Source of the DNA: Liolophura sinensis
Lineage: Eukaryota; Mollusca; Polyplacophora; Chitonida; Chitonidae
Reading direction: 5' to 3'
Assembly: GCF_032854445.1 (NCBI RefSeq)
Contig: NC_088295.1
Coordinates: 47,047,385-47,111,384 of the forward strand
Length of the DNA stretch: 64,000 bases
This document shows, piece after piece, positions 12,303 through 56,020 of the stretch (position 1 is the stretch's first letter; the number at the start of each line of letters is the position of its first letter). A program made the translations under genes and the position numbers. The notes below the pieces were generated by a model. That model did no database searches. It had not been told where the DNA came from and was given only the letters and a program-made list of their open reading frames with translations.

Positions 12303-12503
12303 ATGGCTGTTGAGTTGATGTGTTACGAATCGAACCGAATTCCTCGGGCATATGAAGACCCGGTCCTTATAAAAGATGACCGAGTGCTTCATAATTTGTT
12401 GACAACCGAGGATAGATATCTGCCTACTCCCTCTTACTTCAGTTGTGTGCAAACGGACATAAAACCTTACATGAGGCGGATGGTAGCGCAGTGGATGCTA
12501 GAG
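12303..12503 (+). CDS. CCND: Cyclin D coding exon 1
   Basis: Codes for residues 1-67, from the start methionine to WMLE. It carries the LxCxE motif (L5, C7, E9) and the first helix of the cyclin box ([11 protein letters not shown]). The donor is GAG|GTACGT, phase 0. The exon ends at the same protein position (after WMLE) as the first coding exon of vertebrate D cyclins, as far as I recall those gene structures. Confidence 0.95.
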
Positions 12504-15500
12504 GTACGTAAAGCTGTGACAGGCACTTTCATTCATTCATTCCCCTCCGTTTTTACAGGGGTGGTTAAAGTTTGATATATGTTGTCATCGGATCGTTATG
12601 TGTTGGGATTAGTCGAGAAATAATTTACAGACGACTTATCTCGACTGACTGCAAGTCTTAGGGGACCTCTGTTTGAGCGAAAATGTTATGCGAAAGGCAA
12701 ATATGCAGGCGCTCTACTTTAAGCAGTGATGGGGCTGGCAGCCATGTTGTCACCAATGCACCAGATGTGCGCTGCCTAGACTGCCAAGAAGACTCGATTT
12801 CTGGCCGTTTATGTTTCTCTTCTTGTCACTTTTTTCCCATGAATCGATGGAAATGGTATTTCTCTTCCCATTAAATACCATTTTTTACTTATTCGTGTGA
12901 TATTAAAAAAAATTCGAACTCTCCCTGGATGGTGTCGGGATGGTGAAAAAGGTCACATATTTACTGGGGGTGTCTTCACCTAAACTCTGATTTCCCGAAA
13001 AGTACTGGTGCAATTTACTTGTAAACTTTTGCGATCTCTTCTGGGAATGATGTTACAGCGATTTTATCATGTAGCTTGAGGGAATTTTATTTTGTTCTCG
13101 AGATATTTACAAATTTTAGGATGTGAACGCATGAAAAAACTTTGGCGCGCTTTTGGGGAAGTCATGGGTACTGGGAGGGATCATCCATATGTATTTGGGA
13201 CGAAGAGATTTCCTGGCTGCAACATACCGACAAGACACCCACTCGTTTTTTCTTTTTGCTTTATTTCGAGTTTCAAACTTTCTAAACGGCATAATTTCGG
13301 TATTTCTACAAGGTTAAGGGACTTGTTCATGTCCTTAAAACTTGTCAACAAACATATACATACACGCCTATGTTGCAGACCTATAGAGTTCTGTATGCTA
13401 TATTTTTTAGATGACTGATTGAGAGGAGTTTTCTTTTTCATTGTAGGTATGTGAAGAGCAAAGGTGCGAAGAGGAGGTGTTTCCATTATCCATGAATTAT
13501 TTAGACAGATTTCTTTCACTTCGAGATGTACATAGGAGCAGACTACAGTTACTGGGAGCATCTTGCATGTTCTTGGCATCCAAGTTAAAACAGACATTGC
13601 CTCTGACAGCCGAGAAGTTGGTCATATATACCGACAATTCAATTCATCCAAGAGAATTAATGGTAGGCCTACATATTTTATCATTTTTGTTTCTTCTCTA
13701 AGTCGATCTTTTGTAATTTAATAATTATTTCCCCTCCACCCCTTTCGCTTTTGGCGGGTTATTCGGTGCGTGTTGCGAGGCACCTGGAGGAAGCTAACAA
13801 AGTCACAACTCAACATTGTTGCCTATCTGCAAAAAATAAGGCCTGCCGTTGGAAAGGGGTGTGGTTTGGGGTGGGATTTAATTTACTTTCGCTTAGAAGT
13901 TAGAACAAACATTAATATGGCATATATGGGCTTTGTATATTGAGTTTCTCTCGGCAACGTGAGAAATTAAATTAGTGTATAAATGAAGCATCTGACGAAC
14001 TTGCATTGCACCACATCATTCTGTAACGGTTTGAAGGTAGAATATCGCGGTTTTCAGCATTATTGATTTCTCTGAATATCTGGAATTCACGCCCGCCTGC
14101 ATGCCAGCAGGCCTACACGACTTTCAACAGGTGCCTGTCGCTCGGCGGTTCACCGGCTTGCCGCATGAGCTGATCCGCCGGACGCAGGCCACTCGGCCGG
14201 CCAGGACGTTTCCGATAGCTCTTTTCCCATCGTGGTCGCTTCAGTCGCAGGTCCTTAGTTAATTTGACTTTCCTGTGTTTACATAATTTCGCTTGTAGAT
14301 AACGCCTGCAACAGAATACACTGAAAGTGTAGCTATTCTGTTTTGGTGTAGATAACACGTTTTGTGGGAGGCACTCGGCAAGGCTAAATGTTCTGGCCGA
14401 AGAAGTCTATGGCAACAACGGCGTGTTCAGTCAGTGTTTGCCTGCCTGGTCGAGTTGACTTTTCCGCCTGGCCGCATCGCTGTTTTCGAGCCCGTAACCG
14501 GACAGTCCGATCACCGTGGGTGTTCACAACACTTCTCGATAACTGCTTTCAGTACATAGGCGCCTCCAACTTCGGATAAGGTGTGCTTGAATGAGGTTAA
14601 TCCCAGACTCAACCTACCGTGCTGCAGTCTTGTGTAGGTCTGACATACTTAACTTACACCAATTTTCTTTTGTCTTGCAGGAAATGGAATCGGTACTTCT
14701 GAATAAATTGAAATGGGACTTATCGGCTGTCACGCCTCACGATTTTCTCGGACAAATTTTACACAGACTTCCGTTCGACAAGCACAAGAAAGAAGCAATG
14801 AAGAGACATGCACAGACATTTATAGCCCTTTGTTGTACCGGTAAGTTCTAACCTTTATTTTTATCTTTGCTTTGCTTTTGATATAAATGTAGTTGATACA
14901 GTTTTTAAGCATGTTTACTACTACCAGATCTCGCCGTTTTGCATTTTAGGTCTGTGAAATAATTTACATGTCGGTTGATGTTGTGAAATAATTCAAGTAA
15001 AAGGCTATTTATAGAGTTATTCGGTAGAGTTTTATATTACAGAAGTCATTCACCCGCTCCATCCTTTTTCATAAGTTTGTCTGCGACACTGCTACCATTG
15101 ATGGTAAACAAGAAGAAATTAGAGCTAGCTTGGATTGTTTATGGTTGAATTTCCTGTTTGGCCTCAGTAATCCGTAAACACAAGGGGTGTGGCAAGTCAC
15201 AAGAAATCATAACAGGTCAACCCATAGTCTCAGTATGATGTGGTTTGGGTTATGTCATTTGCGCTTTCGGTTTAATCCATGGCGACTGTAACTAGCTTAA
15301 GAGTGCCGTAGCTTCGAAATGTTAAGCCTCCAGTTTACCAAAGCATTTGCGAAAATCAAACTCTCCCTATAAAAATCATTGATAAAATTATAAGGCCAAG
15401 TCAAGATATGGCTGCTAACGTGTCAAAGCCTTGGCTAAATCAGTTATCAGTTTGAATATAGTCTATAGAGATGCCCCACAGAGTATTTATTGTCTTAGAT

Positions 15501-18500
15501 TAGGGTGGGATGTGTTTCCGGGCTTAGTGTATGTGTTCATAAGAGCAGCAAGTGGACCCCCACTTCCCGCTGTGGCTTTCGGGGTATGTGGCCCGTTGAA
15601 TGAATGAATGAAAGGCTGTCGGAGAGCCACGTGTGTGGCCACCTAGAGTTAGCTCCCTTGGACCTCATTGTCTCGAATTCGTTGCTTGGCCCAACTACCC
15701 AGTTATACCTTAACATATAATAATATCTCTCTCATGCTGTGTTCAGGCAGGGGTTACTTATGATAAAAATTCAATACAGTTATAATTGATTTAATATGCA
15801 TAATAAATGAATAACATCTAATTAAAATAAAACACTGGAACTAATTGAAAAAAAAATTTGTGATAAAGTTACAAGAAGTTAAATTTCTTATTCTGAAAAT
15901 AAGAAAATAAATATCTATAAAAAAAATAAATTAGTAAACTAGTTAGGGTAGTACATTTTCCAGTGTACAAAGAAGTAATTAATAAGGTGTTGTTCAGAGT
16001 TAAGTTTGTTTGCTCTTGTTGCTAACAGCTGGTGTAGGATGGCTTAAAACCTGAGCTTGGCTAGCCATGGAATGTGGTTTGAGCTGACCTAAATTATAGC
16101 GGATGAGATGGATCACTAAGATTTCGCGAGGCATTGGAATGCGAATTAATTAAGAGCTGTATTGTTTTAACTTTGTGCACTGGCTTTACGTGTCGGTTGA
16201 CTTAGTACTTAACAACTTGAGGTGGCGTGCAGTAGTACACAATGTAAAACTGTTGACCCAAGATTTTTATTTGTGCAAAGTCGTAAATAGCTGAGTATCT
16301 CCTATTCTTTCTACGTATAGTAATTTTTCTATTTTCTCCTCTTCACATTATATGATTTAATATGACAAGTTACGAGGCTTACTAAGTCTAGCTTTATTTG
16401 TGAGTGATAATGTAAGTGATAGGCGGCTAATGTTTTTGATTGAGCTTCAAATAAAGTTCTGTTGTTGACTTTCATTGTACTAATATGCGAAGCTCATCAG
16501 AAGGGTTTGTTAAAGAAGTGTAAAGCTTCTGGGCAGAGGTCGGCTGTTTTATTACCACTGTGACCTAGACTAGAGGATGAGGTCACCCCACAGCAGGTGG
16601 CTGGGGGAGAAAAGGTAAATCTGACCTCAGCAGTCTTCATAATAGGTCTCATCAAATTTCGGTTCTCTACAGAAAAAAAAAAGATTAAAAGAAAAAATGA
16701 TGTGTTGAACAGCAGATGTCTAGTAAAGGTTCTTTTACAAAGTGGAGTCATTTCAAGTCTCGTGCCTATACACTGGCCACACAATAAACTTGTGTTTTTA
16801 TCTGGAGTAAATGGCACGTTCCTGTATTGTTCAAAGTCTGAGCCACACGCGAACATCTGAACATCTGCCTCTTGCCCTGGTGATACCTATTGTGTCGAAC
16901 GTCTACTCCGAGTTGATGAAGGGCTTTTGCTCCCCCCTTCCAGTCTTTAGCACAATGTAGGTGTTTCCCCTTTCAAGCCCATCCTTTAGTCACCCCTGGA
17001 TAACTGGGTGATGGGCAGCTGGTCTTCTGTCTTGGCACATAAGTCATAAGACACTAAGTTCCATTATAGCAGCATGGCATTATTTAAGCCTCATGAATAT
17101 GTATTAGGTATGCGATGTTACTATTATTAACATTGGTCATATTATGAAACAGTTAATCCGTTTAGAATTTAATATTATAAGGTGATCATAGTATTATTAT
17201 GTTTTTTTTTTTTTCACTTGTACTTGTGGAACACGTTTCTAAATCAGTAACTCAGAATATAAGATAATATCTTAGTGTAAAGTTGGGTCATAACATTGTA
17301 TAGCACCATAGCCTCACAAGTCCTCGATTGCTTCCTCGAAAAGGACTGCATATGAATTTAAAAGTCCCTAAGATTTTGGCTGAAGTTCAAGAGATCAGAA
17401 AGATAATAATATTCAGCTCAAATTGTTTCAAAGAAAATTTTAGCTCGTTTGAATAGATTTCGACTGAAGATCATTTGTGGCCTGTATTACGTGCCATGGA
17501 TTTATTCACGAAAATTCTGGGTTTTCTGGGTACATTTTCTTTATCTGGTTCTTTTCTTAGCATATAAAACTTAACACAGTCACAGATAATACCTCATGCA
17601 GACTGTATGTATAAGTGTATATAAAAAAGTGCACACTTTCATGATCTTTTTTTAGTGGCTTTATTTGAGCTCTGCTGTTGGTCTTACAAACCTTATATCC
17701 TTCTTATAGGGGGCTCACTTCCTCCCTTTTCAGAGTTCCCTCCTTCACCTTGGTCGTAAAAAGACAACTTTTCTACTTGCTCTCATTTCTTTGGGTGTCA
17801 TGTGCCATTGAAAAAAAAATAGGTGAATGCGCGGGACATACAGGGAATGAGAATCCTAAAGCTTATAGCAGTTGCCAGGGGTAGGCGTGAAGTGAATAGC
17901 TGAAAAGAAAACTGACTGTTAATTTTATAGAAATGGGGTCAACTTGAGGTCAGTGCGATTCTCAGCATTCTGGCTGTCTTTATCTAGGTCAGGAATTAGA
18001 CCAAGATGTCTGTGGAGGCATAGACGGCTGAGAAAGTCTGGCGGGCTAGTAGTTAACTTGTTTTTAAAGCCTCGTTGTCTTTTCGTCCTTTCAGACCACA
18101 CCTTCATGATGTACACTCCGTCTATGATTGCGGCCGGTAGCGTGGGGGCGGCGGCGCATGGCTTGTCGTGCGGATCACCGTCACAAGTACTGCAGTGGTT
18201 ACAGCAGATTACAGGCATAGAAATTGTAAGTATATGTACCTTTTTGTTTCCAACAGTTTAGATCTGTCTGTCAATAGCTGGTTATTAGCCATAGCTTATT
18301 AGGTACAAGAAGTGCGCAGAACCTCTCAGTTTGCAAAACATCCGTGTTGTGACTTTTAAAAGTGTTTGCGTGGCTGAAAGTTGTCTGGGCGAGTTTGTAG
18401 CAGTATTTGCATCATGCGCTGTGCTAGCTGCATGGTGGTTAACGTGAATCATGTTAACATAAGTTAAAACATTTAACTTTGAAAGCTGTGTGCATCTGAA

Positions 18501-20202
18501 GCGCTTAGCCCTGAATCAAGAAATGAAAGCACTTGACTTCTGATGCCCCAAGTCAGTGGTTTGTCTTAACAGGTGCTTGATTTGGGTGCCCCTCCCGCAG
18601 GGCCGTCCACTGGAATTGGGGTTGATGGAATGGTACTGTTCCATCTTTTAATGGAATCCTCTTGGGCTACCCAGATTCTCTCAAGGGTTATTAAGTGAGG
18701 GAGACATCCTGAATTGCTCTTTGCTGGTGTTAATTTGCCGAGGCTAGAAAAATGTGTCACTCAACTTTATTATATAGTGTGTGCCTCTCCAGCAATGGCA
18801 CAAGTTTTAGGTTCTGCACAAAGTTATTTACCAAGAATCTGCAAATTTTTATTTCATATGATGACATGATGCCCTGCAGCAGATCACAATGTTAACTCAC
18901 TGTGGCACATTTTCCCAGGGGTCTCCCCAGCACTGAATGGAGTTCATCTGATCTGTGTTTTGTAGATTTGTAACAGATCTGCAGTTATCGCACGTTGAGA
19001 TCTTGTAATGTGCACTTAATCTGTAATTAAGGTGTGCATATATTTCAGCCATTTCAAAAAGTAGGACCCCCCTTTGTGCTGTGCCACTACCAGCTTCCCC
19101 CCTCAGTTTCGTCATGATCTGTGTAGGCGTTTACATGCCAGCCCTTTAATGATTAAGACATAGAGTTGTGTTAAAAGTGTCTTGCAGTTAAAAGGTGTAA
19201 TGTGTGGCTATCAGGTTACCAGTGGGTGTCATTGCCCACTCTTCTCCCCTCCATGTTTGGCCAGCCCCTGAACCTCTCCTCCCGGCACCCTGCCACCCAG
19301 TAGCTGCCCTCTACATTAGGAGGATCCTGTTTGTAAAATAAGCAGCTAAGCCTCTGCTCTGCACAGAGGTCTCTTTGTATGGGCAACCTCCAAAAACCAC
19401 TGCCGCCTGATTCTTGCAACTGTCCATCAGCTAGAGTGTAAAAGGGCGGAAGTAAGAAGTGATTAGATTAAGGGAGACCCCTGCTATGGCTAGGGTCATT
19501 AGAATTCCCCTATCAAGTAAATTAGTCTGGGGTCACTGGCTCAGGATTGAAATCTGATCCTTGGGGTCTGGGAGCTGATGAGAGTTCAGAAATCCCCATC
19601 TCCTACCCACAACTTTTAGGCCCTTCTCACCCAGCCTGCTTCTTGCTGTATTGAAACCAGGCTGGTCTATACACTAATAGAGTGTTTAAAAAAGCAAAAC
19701 AAAATGGTAGTGAATAACATGACAAATTTGGTTTGTTCGGCATAAGTTTCTGGTTTCTGTTGTTTCCCATTGTTACGTTATGCTGTATTGTAGCTTGTTA
19801 CTGTATTAATTTGATGTTTCAATTTGTGGACCATTCAGTTTGACAGGTTTCTTGTTTACCTCATAATTTGGTTGCCTGGTATGTAGTGTTTTTTGATTAC
19901 CATTTCAGACTGATTACCACTTGGTAACAAAGTTGAATAGCACATTGCTCATACAATTTTTGAGTTAAACAAGACATTGTTCATAAAGTGTTTTTTGTCT
20001 ACTTTTTCTATAGACTATTTACGGCGTGTCAGAACAAATTGAACAGGCACTGACGTCAAACCTGTCCAGCAGTTCACACCAGTCTTCACAGGTCAGTTCG
20101 CAAGAGGTGTCTCAACAAGAGGGATTGTCGCCAAACAGGATTCCCAACCCCAGCAACCAACAACACCTACAGACGTTCGTGATATTCACTACTGACTCTT
20201 AA
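12303..20202 (+). CDS. CCND: G1/S-specific cyclin D (five coding exons)
   Basis: Regulatory subunit of CDK4/CDK6. In the known family it activates the kinase in G1, docks on Rb and phosphorylates it, releasing E2F. The coding exons are 12303-12503, 13447-13662, 14681-14840, 18095-18225 and 20014-20202, all with GT-AG introns, giving 298 codons as assembled (human D1 has 295). Visible motifs: LMCYE at residues 5-9 fits the Rb-binding LxCx[12 protein letters not shown] (58-67) and [20 protein letters not shown] (68-87) are the core of the cyclin box; K113 (in ASKLK) and E142 (in [12 protein letters not shown]) correspond to kinase-contacting K112 and E141 of human D1; HAQTFIALC and the AAGSV segment mark the second cyclin fold. 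The start is well fixed: an in-frame TAA lies 6 nt upstream and the context is good (A at -3, G at +4). The C terminus is odd: the assembled frame ends ...TFVIFTTDS, whereas the conserved TPTDVRDI tail is in the -1 frame just there. Family identity is near certain; the exact C terminus is not. Confidence 0.96.
12504..13446 (+). other. Cyclin D intron 1
   Basis: A 943-bp GT-AG intron. It contains a perfect E2F-type sequence TTTGGCGC extending to GCGC (13141-13150). ORFs here have no conserved features. No SINE copy is present. Confidence 0.92.
13141..13150 (+). promoter_or_regulatory. E2F-like site in cyclin D intron 1
   Basis: TTTGGCGCGC matches the TTTSGCGC E2F consensus exactly. It lies 838 bp downstream of the start codon. 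Cyclin D acts upstream of Rb/E2F, so a functional site would imply feedback. Only the sequence match is seen. Confidence 0.3.
13447..13662 (+). CDS. CCND: Cyclin D coding exon 2
   Basis: Codes for residues 68-139, starting [20 protein letters not shown] and ending HPRELM. The acceptor is a pyrimidine-rich tract ending in CATTGTAG and the donor is ATG|GTAGGC; both junctions are phase 0. It holds most of the N-terminal cyclin box, including K113 of ASKLK (CDK contact) and the conserved LTAEKL and IYTDNSI segments. The exon is very close to vertebrate cyclin D1 and D2, which fixes the family. Confidence 0.96.
13663..14680 (+). other. Cyclin D intron 2, with a CpG-rich segment
   Basis: A 1018-bp GT-AG intron. 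The part from about 14090 to 14560 is clearly richer in G+C and CpG than its surroundings, with runs such as GATCCGCCGGACGCAGG and CTCGGCCGGCCAGGACG. ORFs in it show no recognisable domain on either strand. It may be an intronic regulatory element. Confidence 0.9.
14681..14840 (+). CDS. CCND: Cyclin D coding exon 3
   Basis: Codes for residues 140-192 plus the first base of codon 193. The acceptor is TTTTGTCTTGCAG and the donor ACCG|GTAAGT, ending in phase 1. The peptide contains E142, the NKLKW helix, the TPHDF turn and the HAQTFIALC helix, so it covers the end of the first cyclin fold and the start of the second. Confidence 0.95.
14841..18094 (+). other. Cyclin D intron 3
   Basis: The largest intron of the gene (3254 bp). 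A very A-rich stretch lies at about 15780-15960. No SINE, minisatellite or convincing coding exon was seen. The ORFs near 16500-16860 and 17680-17880 are open by chance, with no splice support. Confidence 0.9.
18095..18225 (+). CDS. CCND: Cyclin D coding exon 4
   Basis: Codes for residues 193-236. It enters in phase 1 (the D193 codon is split) and leaves in phase 0. The acceptor is CGTCCTTTCAG and the donor [29 protein letters not shown] matches the conserved NPPSMVAAGSV region of D cyclins; the rest covers the final helices of the second cyclin fold and is more divergent. Confidence 0.93.
18226..20013 (+). other. Cyclin D intron 4
   Basis: A 1788-bp GT-AG intron (GTAAGTATAT to TTTTTCTATAG). 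No repeats or conserved ORF were noticed. Confidence 0.9.
20014..20202 (+). CDS. CCND: Cyclin D coding exon 5, with a probable frame break near the C terminus
   Basis: The acceptor is TACTTTTTCTATAG. The frame begins [17 protein letters not shown], which matches the EQIEALLESSL region of vertebrate D cyclins, then runs into a Ser/Gln-rich stretch ([20 protein letters not shown]). As assembled it stops at TAA 20200-20202. In the frame one base earlier, 20163-20195 reads [10 protein letters not shown] followed by TGA, matching the C-terminal phosphodegron of the family (T286 of human D1). The assembled last 20 or so residues are therefore probably not the real protein. A missing base between about 20092 and 20150, or a small unrecognised intron, would restore the tail and give about 296 residues. 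Confidence 0.88.
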   Translation, partial: TIYGVSEQIEQALTSNLSSSSHQSSQVSSQEVSQQEGLSPNRIPNPSNQQHLQTFVIFTTDS

Positions 20203-34065: not shown

Positions 34066-34665
34066 CACCTCCATGATGAGCCTGCAACTTGGTGAGGCAG
34101 CACCAACACTGACACCCCCATGATGAGCCTGCAACTTGGTGAGGCAGCACCAACACTGACACCCCCATGATGAGCCTGCAACTGGGTGAGGCTGCACCGA
34201 CACCAACACCTCCATGATCAGCCTGCAACTGGGTGAGGCAGGACCGACATTGAAACCTCCATGAACAGCCTACAACTGGGTAAGGCAACACCGACACTGA
34301 AACCTCCATGAACAGCCTACAACTAGGTGAGGCAGCACCAACACTGACACCCCCATCATCAACCTACAACTAGGTGAGGCAGCACCAACACTGACGCCCC
34401 CATGATCAGCCTACAATAGGGTGAGGTAGCACCGACACTGAAACCTCCACAAGTGAGTGACCCAGCATGGACTCTGACACTTCCATGATTAATCTCCAAG
34501 TGGGTGACCCAGCATGGACATTGACACTTCCATGAGTAATCTCCAAGTGGGTGACCCAGCATGGACACTGACACTTCCATGATAAATCTCCAAGTGGGTG
34601 ACCCAGCATGGACACTGAAAACTTCCATGATTAACCTCCAAGTGGGTAATCTGACACAGACACTG
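34066..34665 (+). repeat. Minisatellite B, 47-bp unit in two subfamilies
   Basis: About 12-13 units. Subfamily 1 (34066-34440) carries GCCTGCAACTGGGTGAGGCA; subfamily 2 (about 34450-34640) carries ATCTCCAAGTGGGTGACCCA. They meet at a shortened unit near 34441-34477. Because 47 is not a multiple of three, the array is open in more than one frame, which explains the overlapping repetitive ORFs on the minus strand. Confidence 0.93.
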
Positions 34666-54696: not shown

Positions 54697-55470
54697 CACC
54701 ATATATAATGTTCCTGCTGTAAGCAACTATACTATCTACAATGTTCCTGTCATAAGCACCTACACTATCTACAACGTTCCTGTCATAAGCACCTACACTA
54801 TCCACAAGGCTCCTGTCATAAGCACCAACACTATCTACAATGTTCCTGTTATAAGCACCTACACTATCTACAAGGTTCCTGTCATAAGCATCTACACTAT
54901 CTACAAGGTTCCTACCATAGGCACCTACACTATCTACAATGTTCCTGTCATAAGCACCTACACCATCTACAATGTTCCTGTCATAAGCATCAACACTATC
55001 TACAAAGTTCCTGCCATAAGCACCAACACTATCTGCAAGGTTCCTGCCACAAGCAAGTGCACTATCTACAATGTTCCTGCCATAAGCAATTACACTACCT
55101 ACAATGTTCTTCCCATAAGCAACTACACTATCTACAATGTTCTTGCCATAAGCAACTACACTATCTACAATGTTCCTGTCATAAGCAAATACACTATCTA
55201 AAAGGTTTCTTCTATAAGCAACTGCACTATTTACAATGTTCCTGTCATAAGCAATTACACTATCTACAAGGTTCCTACTATAAGCAAATACACTATGTAC
55301 AAGGTTCCTGTTATAAGCAACAACACTATCTACAAGGTTCCTGCCATGAATACTTACACCATCTCCTCAGAAGAATGCATGTGGGCCTATACACCATGCA
55401 TCTACAGTGTTCGAACCACAAGCACATCCACAATCTCCCTACCTAAAACAAACTCTCTACAATGTTTCTA
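54697..55470 (+). repeat. Minisatellite C, 33-bp unit, about 23 copies
   Basis: Consensus by eye CACTATCTACAATGTTCC plus TGTCATAAGCACCTA. Since 33 is a multiple of three, a long ORF of 11-residue repeats (HYLQCSCHKQL type) runs through 55057-55446. It tracks the DNA unit, has no promoter or splice context and is not called a gene. Confidence 0.95.
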
Positions 55471-55559: not shown

Positions 55560-56020
55560 AAATGTACACCATCTACAATGTTCTTGCTATGCACACATAC
55601 ATGCACACTATCAACAATGTTCCTACCACAAACTTGTACACCATCTACAATGTTCCTGTTATGCACACATACATGCACACTATCAGCAATGTTCCTACCA
55701 CAAACTTGTACACCAGTTACAATGTATACACACATACATGCACACTATCATCAATGTTCCTACCACAAACTTGTACACCAGTTACAATGTATACACACAT
55801 ACATGCACACTATCAACAATGTTCCTACCACAAACTTGTACACCATTTACAATGTATACACACATATATGCACACTATCAAAAATGTTCCTACCACAAAC
55901 TTGTACACCATTTACAATGTAAACACACATACATGCACACTATCAACAATGCTCCTACCACAAATTTGTGCAACAATGTTCCTGCTAAAACACATAAGCA
56001 ATCCACAATGTTCAATCAGA
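55560..56020 (+). repeat. Minisatellite D, 65-72-bp composite unit derived from C
   Basis: About six units of the form ACACCATCTACAATG...CACACATACATGCACACTATC followed by AACAATGTTCCTACCACAAACTTGT. Each unit contains two halves related to the 33-bp unit of minisatellite C plus a CACACATACATG insert, so it is a higher-order repeat. The first units are 72 bp, later ones 65 bp after loss of TTCCTGT-like sequence. Confidence 0.92.

What the first reader, a model, noticed from the sequence alone, without database searches (positions are those of the whole stretch)
20092..20202. Conserved cyclin D phosphodegron tail is present but out of frame
The frame that carries the EQIE...SQQEG part of exon 5 ends in an unrelated peptide (TFVIFTTDS). 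In the frame one base earlier, 20163-20195 reads [10 protein letters not shown] then TGA, matching the TPTDVRDV/I tail with the T286-equivalent threonine (codon 20163-20165) that controls export and degradation of D cyclins. Ten conserved residues ending at a stop codon are very unlikely by chance. Either one base is missing in the assembly between about 20092 and 20150 (the GAGGG run at 20118-20122 is a candidate), or the animal carries a real frameshift that would remove the degron.
Basis: partly seen in the sequence, partly recalled or inferred. Interest (0 to 1): 0.72.

Follow-up and report, generated by a model that had tools for sequence, protein, structure and literature searches.

The report
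Chiton cyclin D with out-of-frame tail
A chiton's only detected cyclin D gene still carries the tail that tells cells when to destroy the protein, but in this assembly the tail is one reading frame off, most likely because of a small sequencing or assembly fault and possibly because of a real mutation in the animal sequenced.

Summary
The window holds a five-exon cyclin D gene (12303-20202). In the frame set by the splice junctions, exon 5 ends in TFVIFTTDS, while [14 protein letters not shown] lies at 20163-20195 in the frame one base earlier. Chance is excluded (about 5e-8 expected). The genome is the chiton Liolophura sinensis (GCA_032854445.1, published as L. japonica), identified by exact scaffold lengths. 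One cyclin D locus was found.

The cause cannot be settled without reads or related chitons, and neither is held here. I favour a local base error in a 14X hifiasm assembly (0.6). A real frameshift allele in this animal comes next (0.17), then a short unannotated intron (0.12).

The evidence is mixed. The undamaged tail suggests an artefact or a very recent event. But two limited controls show no one-base break: 87.9 kb of mitochondrial copies (one 8-base and one 2-base indel) and 20.3 kb of HSP70 matches. The likely site has no base run above 3, not the usual HiFi error context. A composition model from human cyclin D linkers puts the switch near 20122-20140; a general codon-usage model disagrees. 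The species' protein probably keeps its degron.

The parts
12303..12503 (+). cyclin D exon 1 (ATG; LxCxE-like LMCYE at residues 5-9)
   Evidence: phase 0, donor GTACGT
13447..13662 (+). cyclin D exon 2 (cyclin box)
   Evidence: 75% identity to human cyclin D1 over the tblastn segment 13432-13662
14681..14840 (+). cyclin D exon 3
   Evidence: ends in phase 1, donor GTAAGT
18095..18225 (+). cyclin D exon 4
   Evidence: restores phase 0
20014..20202 (+). cyclin D exon 5 as assembled: frame A, ends [12 protein letters not shown] at 20200-20202
   Evidence: Cyclin_C match runs to residue 260, exon 5 begins at residue 237
20119..20140 (+). most likely place of the frame switch (frame A reads SQQE up to 20121; the other frame reads KQDSQPQQP from 20133)
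   Evidence: linker-composition model; contradicted by the general codon-usage model, which gives 83% to 20047-20068
20163..20195 (+). C-terminal phosphodegron [10 protein letters not shown] and TGA stop, one frame earlier than the rest of exon 5
   Evidence: (tblastn 286-293 of human D1 at 20163-20186)

Best explanation
This is the only cyclin D gene found in the chiton Liolophura sinensis, otherwise intact. The species' protein most likely runs from the Ser/Gln-rich linker into [10 protein letters not shown] and is controlled like other D cyclins: phosphorylation of the Thr before Pro, then nuclear export and ubiquitin-dependent destruction. The break of frame in the assembled exon 5 is most likely a local one-base error of a low-coverage (14X HiFi) assembly, and not a property of the species. 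Shown: gene structure, phases, motif, offset, one locus found. Inferred: the cause of the offset, and the function of the tail by homology.
For: All four junctions are canonical and in phase, and exons 1-4 are unbroken. The tail keeps TPTDVRD[IV] and a stop, so it has been under selection until now or nearly so; long-standing loss of use would have let it decay (inference). Other-frame Lys 20133-20135 lies 10 residues before the Thr, while exon 5 as assembled has no Lys; human D cyclins have a lysine in this neighbourhood (D1 K269, 17 before, PMC12101500 passages; D3 15 before; D2 recalled). The assembly used 14X HiFi with hifiasm 0.16.1 and heterozygosity is 1.24%, so each haplotype has about 7X (inference); in the held text the word 'polish' occurs only for library ends (2 of 2 places). 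The assembly does hold indel faults or variants: among 6 full mitochondrial copies in contig C99, one has an 8-base deletion that breaks COI and one a 2-base insertion.
Against: Controls show few such faults: no one-base indel among 6 mitochondrial copies of 14.6 kb, and no split of the kind a frame break inside an exon would give in 49 HSP70 matches, 20,268 bp. The likely switch region has no base run above 3; the longest run in exon 5 is CCCC at 20148, whereas HiFi indel errors gather in homopolymers and tandem repeats (PMC11429912, a preprint, passages).
Confidence: 0.6

Rival explanations
1. A real one-base frameshift allele carried by the sequenced animal (one haplotype or both). The protein would lose the Thr-Pro phosphodegron and end in an unrelated tail, a gain-of-function-like change expected to hold cyclin D in the nucleus.
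For: HiFi assembly with few indels in two controls; no homopolymer at the likely site; 1.24% heterozygosity; one cyclin D locus found, so no second copy explains the break.
Against: A dominant degron loss in the only cyclin D should be selected against (inference). The tail shows no decay. Human cyclin D1b, which lacks Thr286, is nuclear but was not significantly more stable (PMC1559605, passages), so even the effect is not certain.
Confidence: 0.17
2. A short, unannotated intron of 3k+2 bases inside exon 5 joins the two frames in the mature mRNA; candidates include 20092-20138 (47 bases) and 20092-20153 (62 bases).
For: 18 GT/GC-AG pairs 26-107 bases long would join the frames; CAG|GTCAGT at 20092 is close to the donor consensus (consensus recalled).
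Against: Of 48 neighbouring exon pieces measured (33 HSP70, 11 kinase, 4 cyclin pairs; kinase pairs picked by eye), the smallest gap was 155 bases. The acceptor sides lack a clear pyrimidine tract. The supposed intron reads [10 protein letters not shown] in frame, like the flanking linker. With an acceptor at 20138 or 20153 the nearby lysine is lost. With so many GT and AG pairs, some fit the frame by chance.
Confidence: 0.12
3. Fixed loss or replacement of the degron in the species or lineage: all L. sinensis end in TFVIFTTDS.
For: The assembled sequence as it stands.
Against: The tail and its stop are undamaged; no relative could be compared.
Confidence: 0.05
4. Programmed -1 ribosomal frameshifting makes a fraction of the protein with the degron.
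For: The offset has the direction of a -1 shift.
Against: No X XXY YYZ heptamer in any frame of 20013-20195.
Confidence: 0.02

Closest known systems
Human cyclins D1, D2, D3 (CCND1-3)
   Same: Cyclin_N and Cyclin_C domains, best solved-structure matches cyclin D3 (2.4e-93) and D1, LxCxE-like N terminus, C-terminal TPTDVRD[IV] motif.
   Different: In the assembled chiton exon 5 the motif is one frame off.
Cyclin D1b splice form
   Same: A cyclin D without the Thr286 tail and with an unrelated C terminus (PMC1559605, passages).
   Different: D1b comes from reading into intron 4; here exon 5 is present and only its last part changes frame.
AMBRA1-recognised cyclin D phosphodegron
   Same: The peptide 284-295 of cyclin D1 with phospho-Thr286 binds DDB1-AMBRA1 at about 200 nM (PMC12101500, passages); the chiton [10 protein letters not shown] corresponds to its last 10 residues.
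   Different: Binding in chitons is untested.

Membership tests
D-type cyclin | Cyclin_N and Cyclin_C domains | tested here: met
   1.4e-40 and 1.4e-14, both over the cut-off
D-type cyclin | Closer to cyclin D than to A, B or E | tested here: met
   (best 60 of 72 shown): D3 2.4e-93, D1 6.8e-87; best viral cyclin 4.2e-28, cyclin A 1.6e-24, cyclin E 1.7e-17, cyclin B 6.9e-15
D-type cyclin | N-terminal LxCxE Rb-binding motif (recalled) | tested here: met
   LMCYE at residues 5-9 of the translation, by reading
D-type cyclin | C-terminal Thr-Pro phosphodegron in the reading frame of the gene | tested here: not met
   present at 20163-20195 but one frame off in the assembly; D1b shows that a D cyclin can lack it, so I count it as a usual, not a defining, feature
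Cyclin D with working phosphodegron | Thr phosphorylated and bound by AMBRA1 or an F-box protein | not testable with these tools
   needs experiment
Assembly error | Reads disagree with the assembled bases | not testable with these tools
   reads SRX20411988 and SRX21911526 not held

The most novel reading that the evidence does not exclude
The sequenced chiton, or its species, really carries a cyclin D whose conserved destruction tail has been frameshifted away in its only copy: a natural degron-loss allele in a wild animal.
Probability: 0.2. Interest if true: 0.7.

Novelty: new member of a known kind. Interest (0 to 1): 0.22.

Why it matters
If the frameshift is real, a wild animal lives with a cyclin D that has lost the tail whose loss is oncogenic in mammals, which would test how essential that tail is. 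If it is an assembly fault, which I think likelier, the use is practical: the cyclin D model of this chiton should be checked against reads before anyone reports a degron loss from it.

Tried and rejected
Second cyclin D copy, haplotig or retrocopy as the source of the tail: exon 5 DNA and the tail peptide each matched one place, the window. Of 15 Cyclin_N pieces one is exon 2 of the window gene; the 14 others are at most 46% identical to this cyclin D where tblastn aligned them (L016 and L025 gave no row), against 75% for human D1 over exon 2, so none looks like a second cyclin D. They were not named further. My 860-codon training set used ten of them.

Slippery heptamer for ribosomal frameshifting: none.

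Placing the switch by general codon usage (860 codons of cyclin exons) gave 83% to 20047-20068 and 2.6% to 20128. I prefer the linker-composition model (20122-20140) because exon 5 past the cyclin fold is a Ser/Gln-rich stretch unlike the folded domain, but the two disagree and the place is not settled.

Relatives: one scan of genome contigs with exon 2 gave one weak bacterial match (36% over residues 8-68, Clostridium), not followed. I had no animal genome other than the window's own; viral contigs was not scanned.

Literature: three degron-peptide strings gave 7 papers, none on molluscs by title. 'Cyclin D' with oyster or Thr286 (20 of 388 listed), with mollusc, chiton, phosphodegron, frameshift (15 of 26 listed) and with invertebrate and Drosophila terms (12 of 567 listed) showed nothing on a chiton cyclin D in the rows listed.

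Larger frame-break control: PF00118, PF00063, PF00091 and PF00022 were asked for and not answered.

Ten long ORFs of the window that I picked (of 267 listed, tandem-array ORFs left out, not strictly the ten longest) had no Pfam match at 0.01. No tRNA was found.

Full report
What is there. The window is C1:47047385-47111384 of a 609-Mb genome. Contig lengths 96,433,062 (C1), 58,388,612 (C8), 37,343,639 (C9) and 31,077,156 (C12) are exactly lengths printed for the chiton assembly GCA_032854445.1, which also has 632 scaffolds (PMC11068029; part 1 of 5 read, found passages). The total differs slightly (609,464,459 here, 609,495,693 in the paper). The authors later renamed the species from Liolophura japonica to L. 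sinensis (PMC12441733, whole text).

The gene. Splice sites and phases give five exons, 12303-12503, 13447-13662, 14681-14840, 18095-18225 and 20014-20202, all introns GT-AG, encoding 298 residues as assembled. Pfam Cyclin_N and Cyclin_C match. The closest solved structures are cyclins D3 and D1, and the alignment runs through the exon 4/5 junction. It is a D cyclin. Exon 5 DNA and the tail peptide match one place each, and the other 14 Cyclin_N pieces of the genome are at most 46% identical to it where they align.

The offset. With phase 0 at the exon 4/5 junction the frame of exon 5 is fixed. It reads [62 protein letters not shown]. One base earlier, 20163-20195 reads [10 protein letters not shown] and stop. 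Under a first-order model 4.7e-8 copies of TPTDVRD[IV] are expected in about 600 positions. So the tail is a real, conserved degron that is not joined to its gene as assembled. To join it, the mRNA would need one more base, or 3k+2 fewer.

Where the switch lies. A model with the composition of the human D1, D2 or D3 linker, or all three, puts it at about 20122-20140. A model from 860 codons of folded cyclin exons gives 83% to 20047-20068 and 2.6% to 20128. The first fits the kind of sequence better, but I count the place as open. No slippery heptamer exists, and the only base run of 4 or more in exon 5 is CCCC at 20148.

Error, allele or intron. The assembly came from 14X HiFi reads of 8.3 kb mean length with hifiasm 0.16.1; heterozygosity is 1.24% and the RNA came from another animal. 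In the held text 'polish' occurs only for library ends. As controls I used, first, contig C99, a chain of mitochondrial copies: 6 full stretches of about 14,645 bases agree with each other except for one 8-base deletion, which breaks COI, and one 2-base insertion. The seventh copy, split over the contig ends, showed no gap against C632; the control regions were not compared between copies. Mitochondrial depth is normally higher than nuclear depth (general knowledge, not measured here), so this control may flatter the nuclear part. Second, 49 HSP70 matches over 20,268 bp, with 58 of 58 candidates scored, gave 33 neighbouring pairs, none closer than 155 bases, so no split of the kind a frame break inside an exon would give. 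Overrun of matches into introns can give such stops: two Cyclin_N matches on C9 with four stops each read, by eye, as parts of two exons with intron sequence attached. Kinase pieces (131 of 842 candidates scored; 22 of 138 rows examined) gave 11 pairs with a smallest gap of 168; cyclins gave 4 pairs with 155. The 48 pairs together speak against an intron of 47-62 bases.

Weighing. One-base faults look rare in this assembly, but a frameshift that removes the degron of the only cyclin D should be rarer still in a living animal, and the tail shows no decay. I therefore put a local assembly or read error first (0.6), a real allele second (0.17), a short intron third (0.12), a fixed loss at 0.05 and programmed frameshifting at 0.02. 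These are judgements, not computed posteriors.

What it would do. In mammals phospho-Thr286 drives CRM1 export and turnover, and the phosphorylated peptide 284-295 binds DDB1-AMBRA1 (PMC12101500, passages). Cyclin D1b, which lacks Thr286, is nuclear but was not significantly more stable (PMC1559605, passages). If the chiton frameshift were real, nuclear retention would be the safer prediction, longer life the less safe one.

Known or new. This is an ordinary D cyclin with an ordinary degron. The only surprising reading, a natural degron-loss allele, is not excluded but rests on one unverified base in one assembly.

Noticed in passing
G000 contigs C99 (108,685 bases) and C632 (15,209 bases): The assembly, described as coming from a single chiton, holds two mitochondrial haplotypes that differ at 36 sites in 14.6 kb (32 transitions, 4 transversions), C99 as a chain of about seven copies. 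Possible causes: DNA of a second animal, heteroplasmy, or a mitochondrial record of other origin. If two animals were mixed, depth per haplotype at cyclin D is lower still.
   Followed up: partly
window 54707-55347 and 55575-55996: Two tandem arrays (33-base unit, 19.4 copies; 65-base unit with 130- and 195-base forms) whose units share AATGTTCCT. They underlie the longest stop-to-stop frames of the window (up to 245 aa), on both strands; likely not genes.
   Followed up: no
window 34066-34647: Two adjacent tandem arrays with the same 47-base period but different consensus units.
   Followed up: no
G000:C1:28756494-28757417: An HSP70 match (profile 1-308) reported with an open frame of 42,745 residues, which suggests a long run of N or withheld bases beside it.
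   Followed up: no
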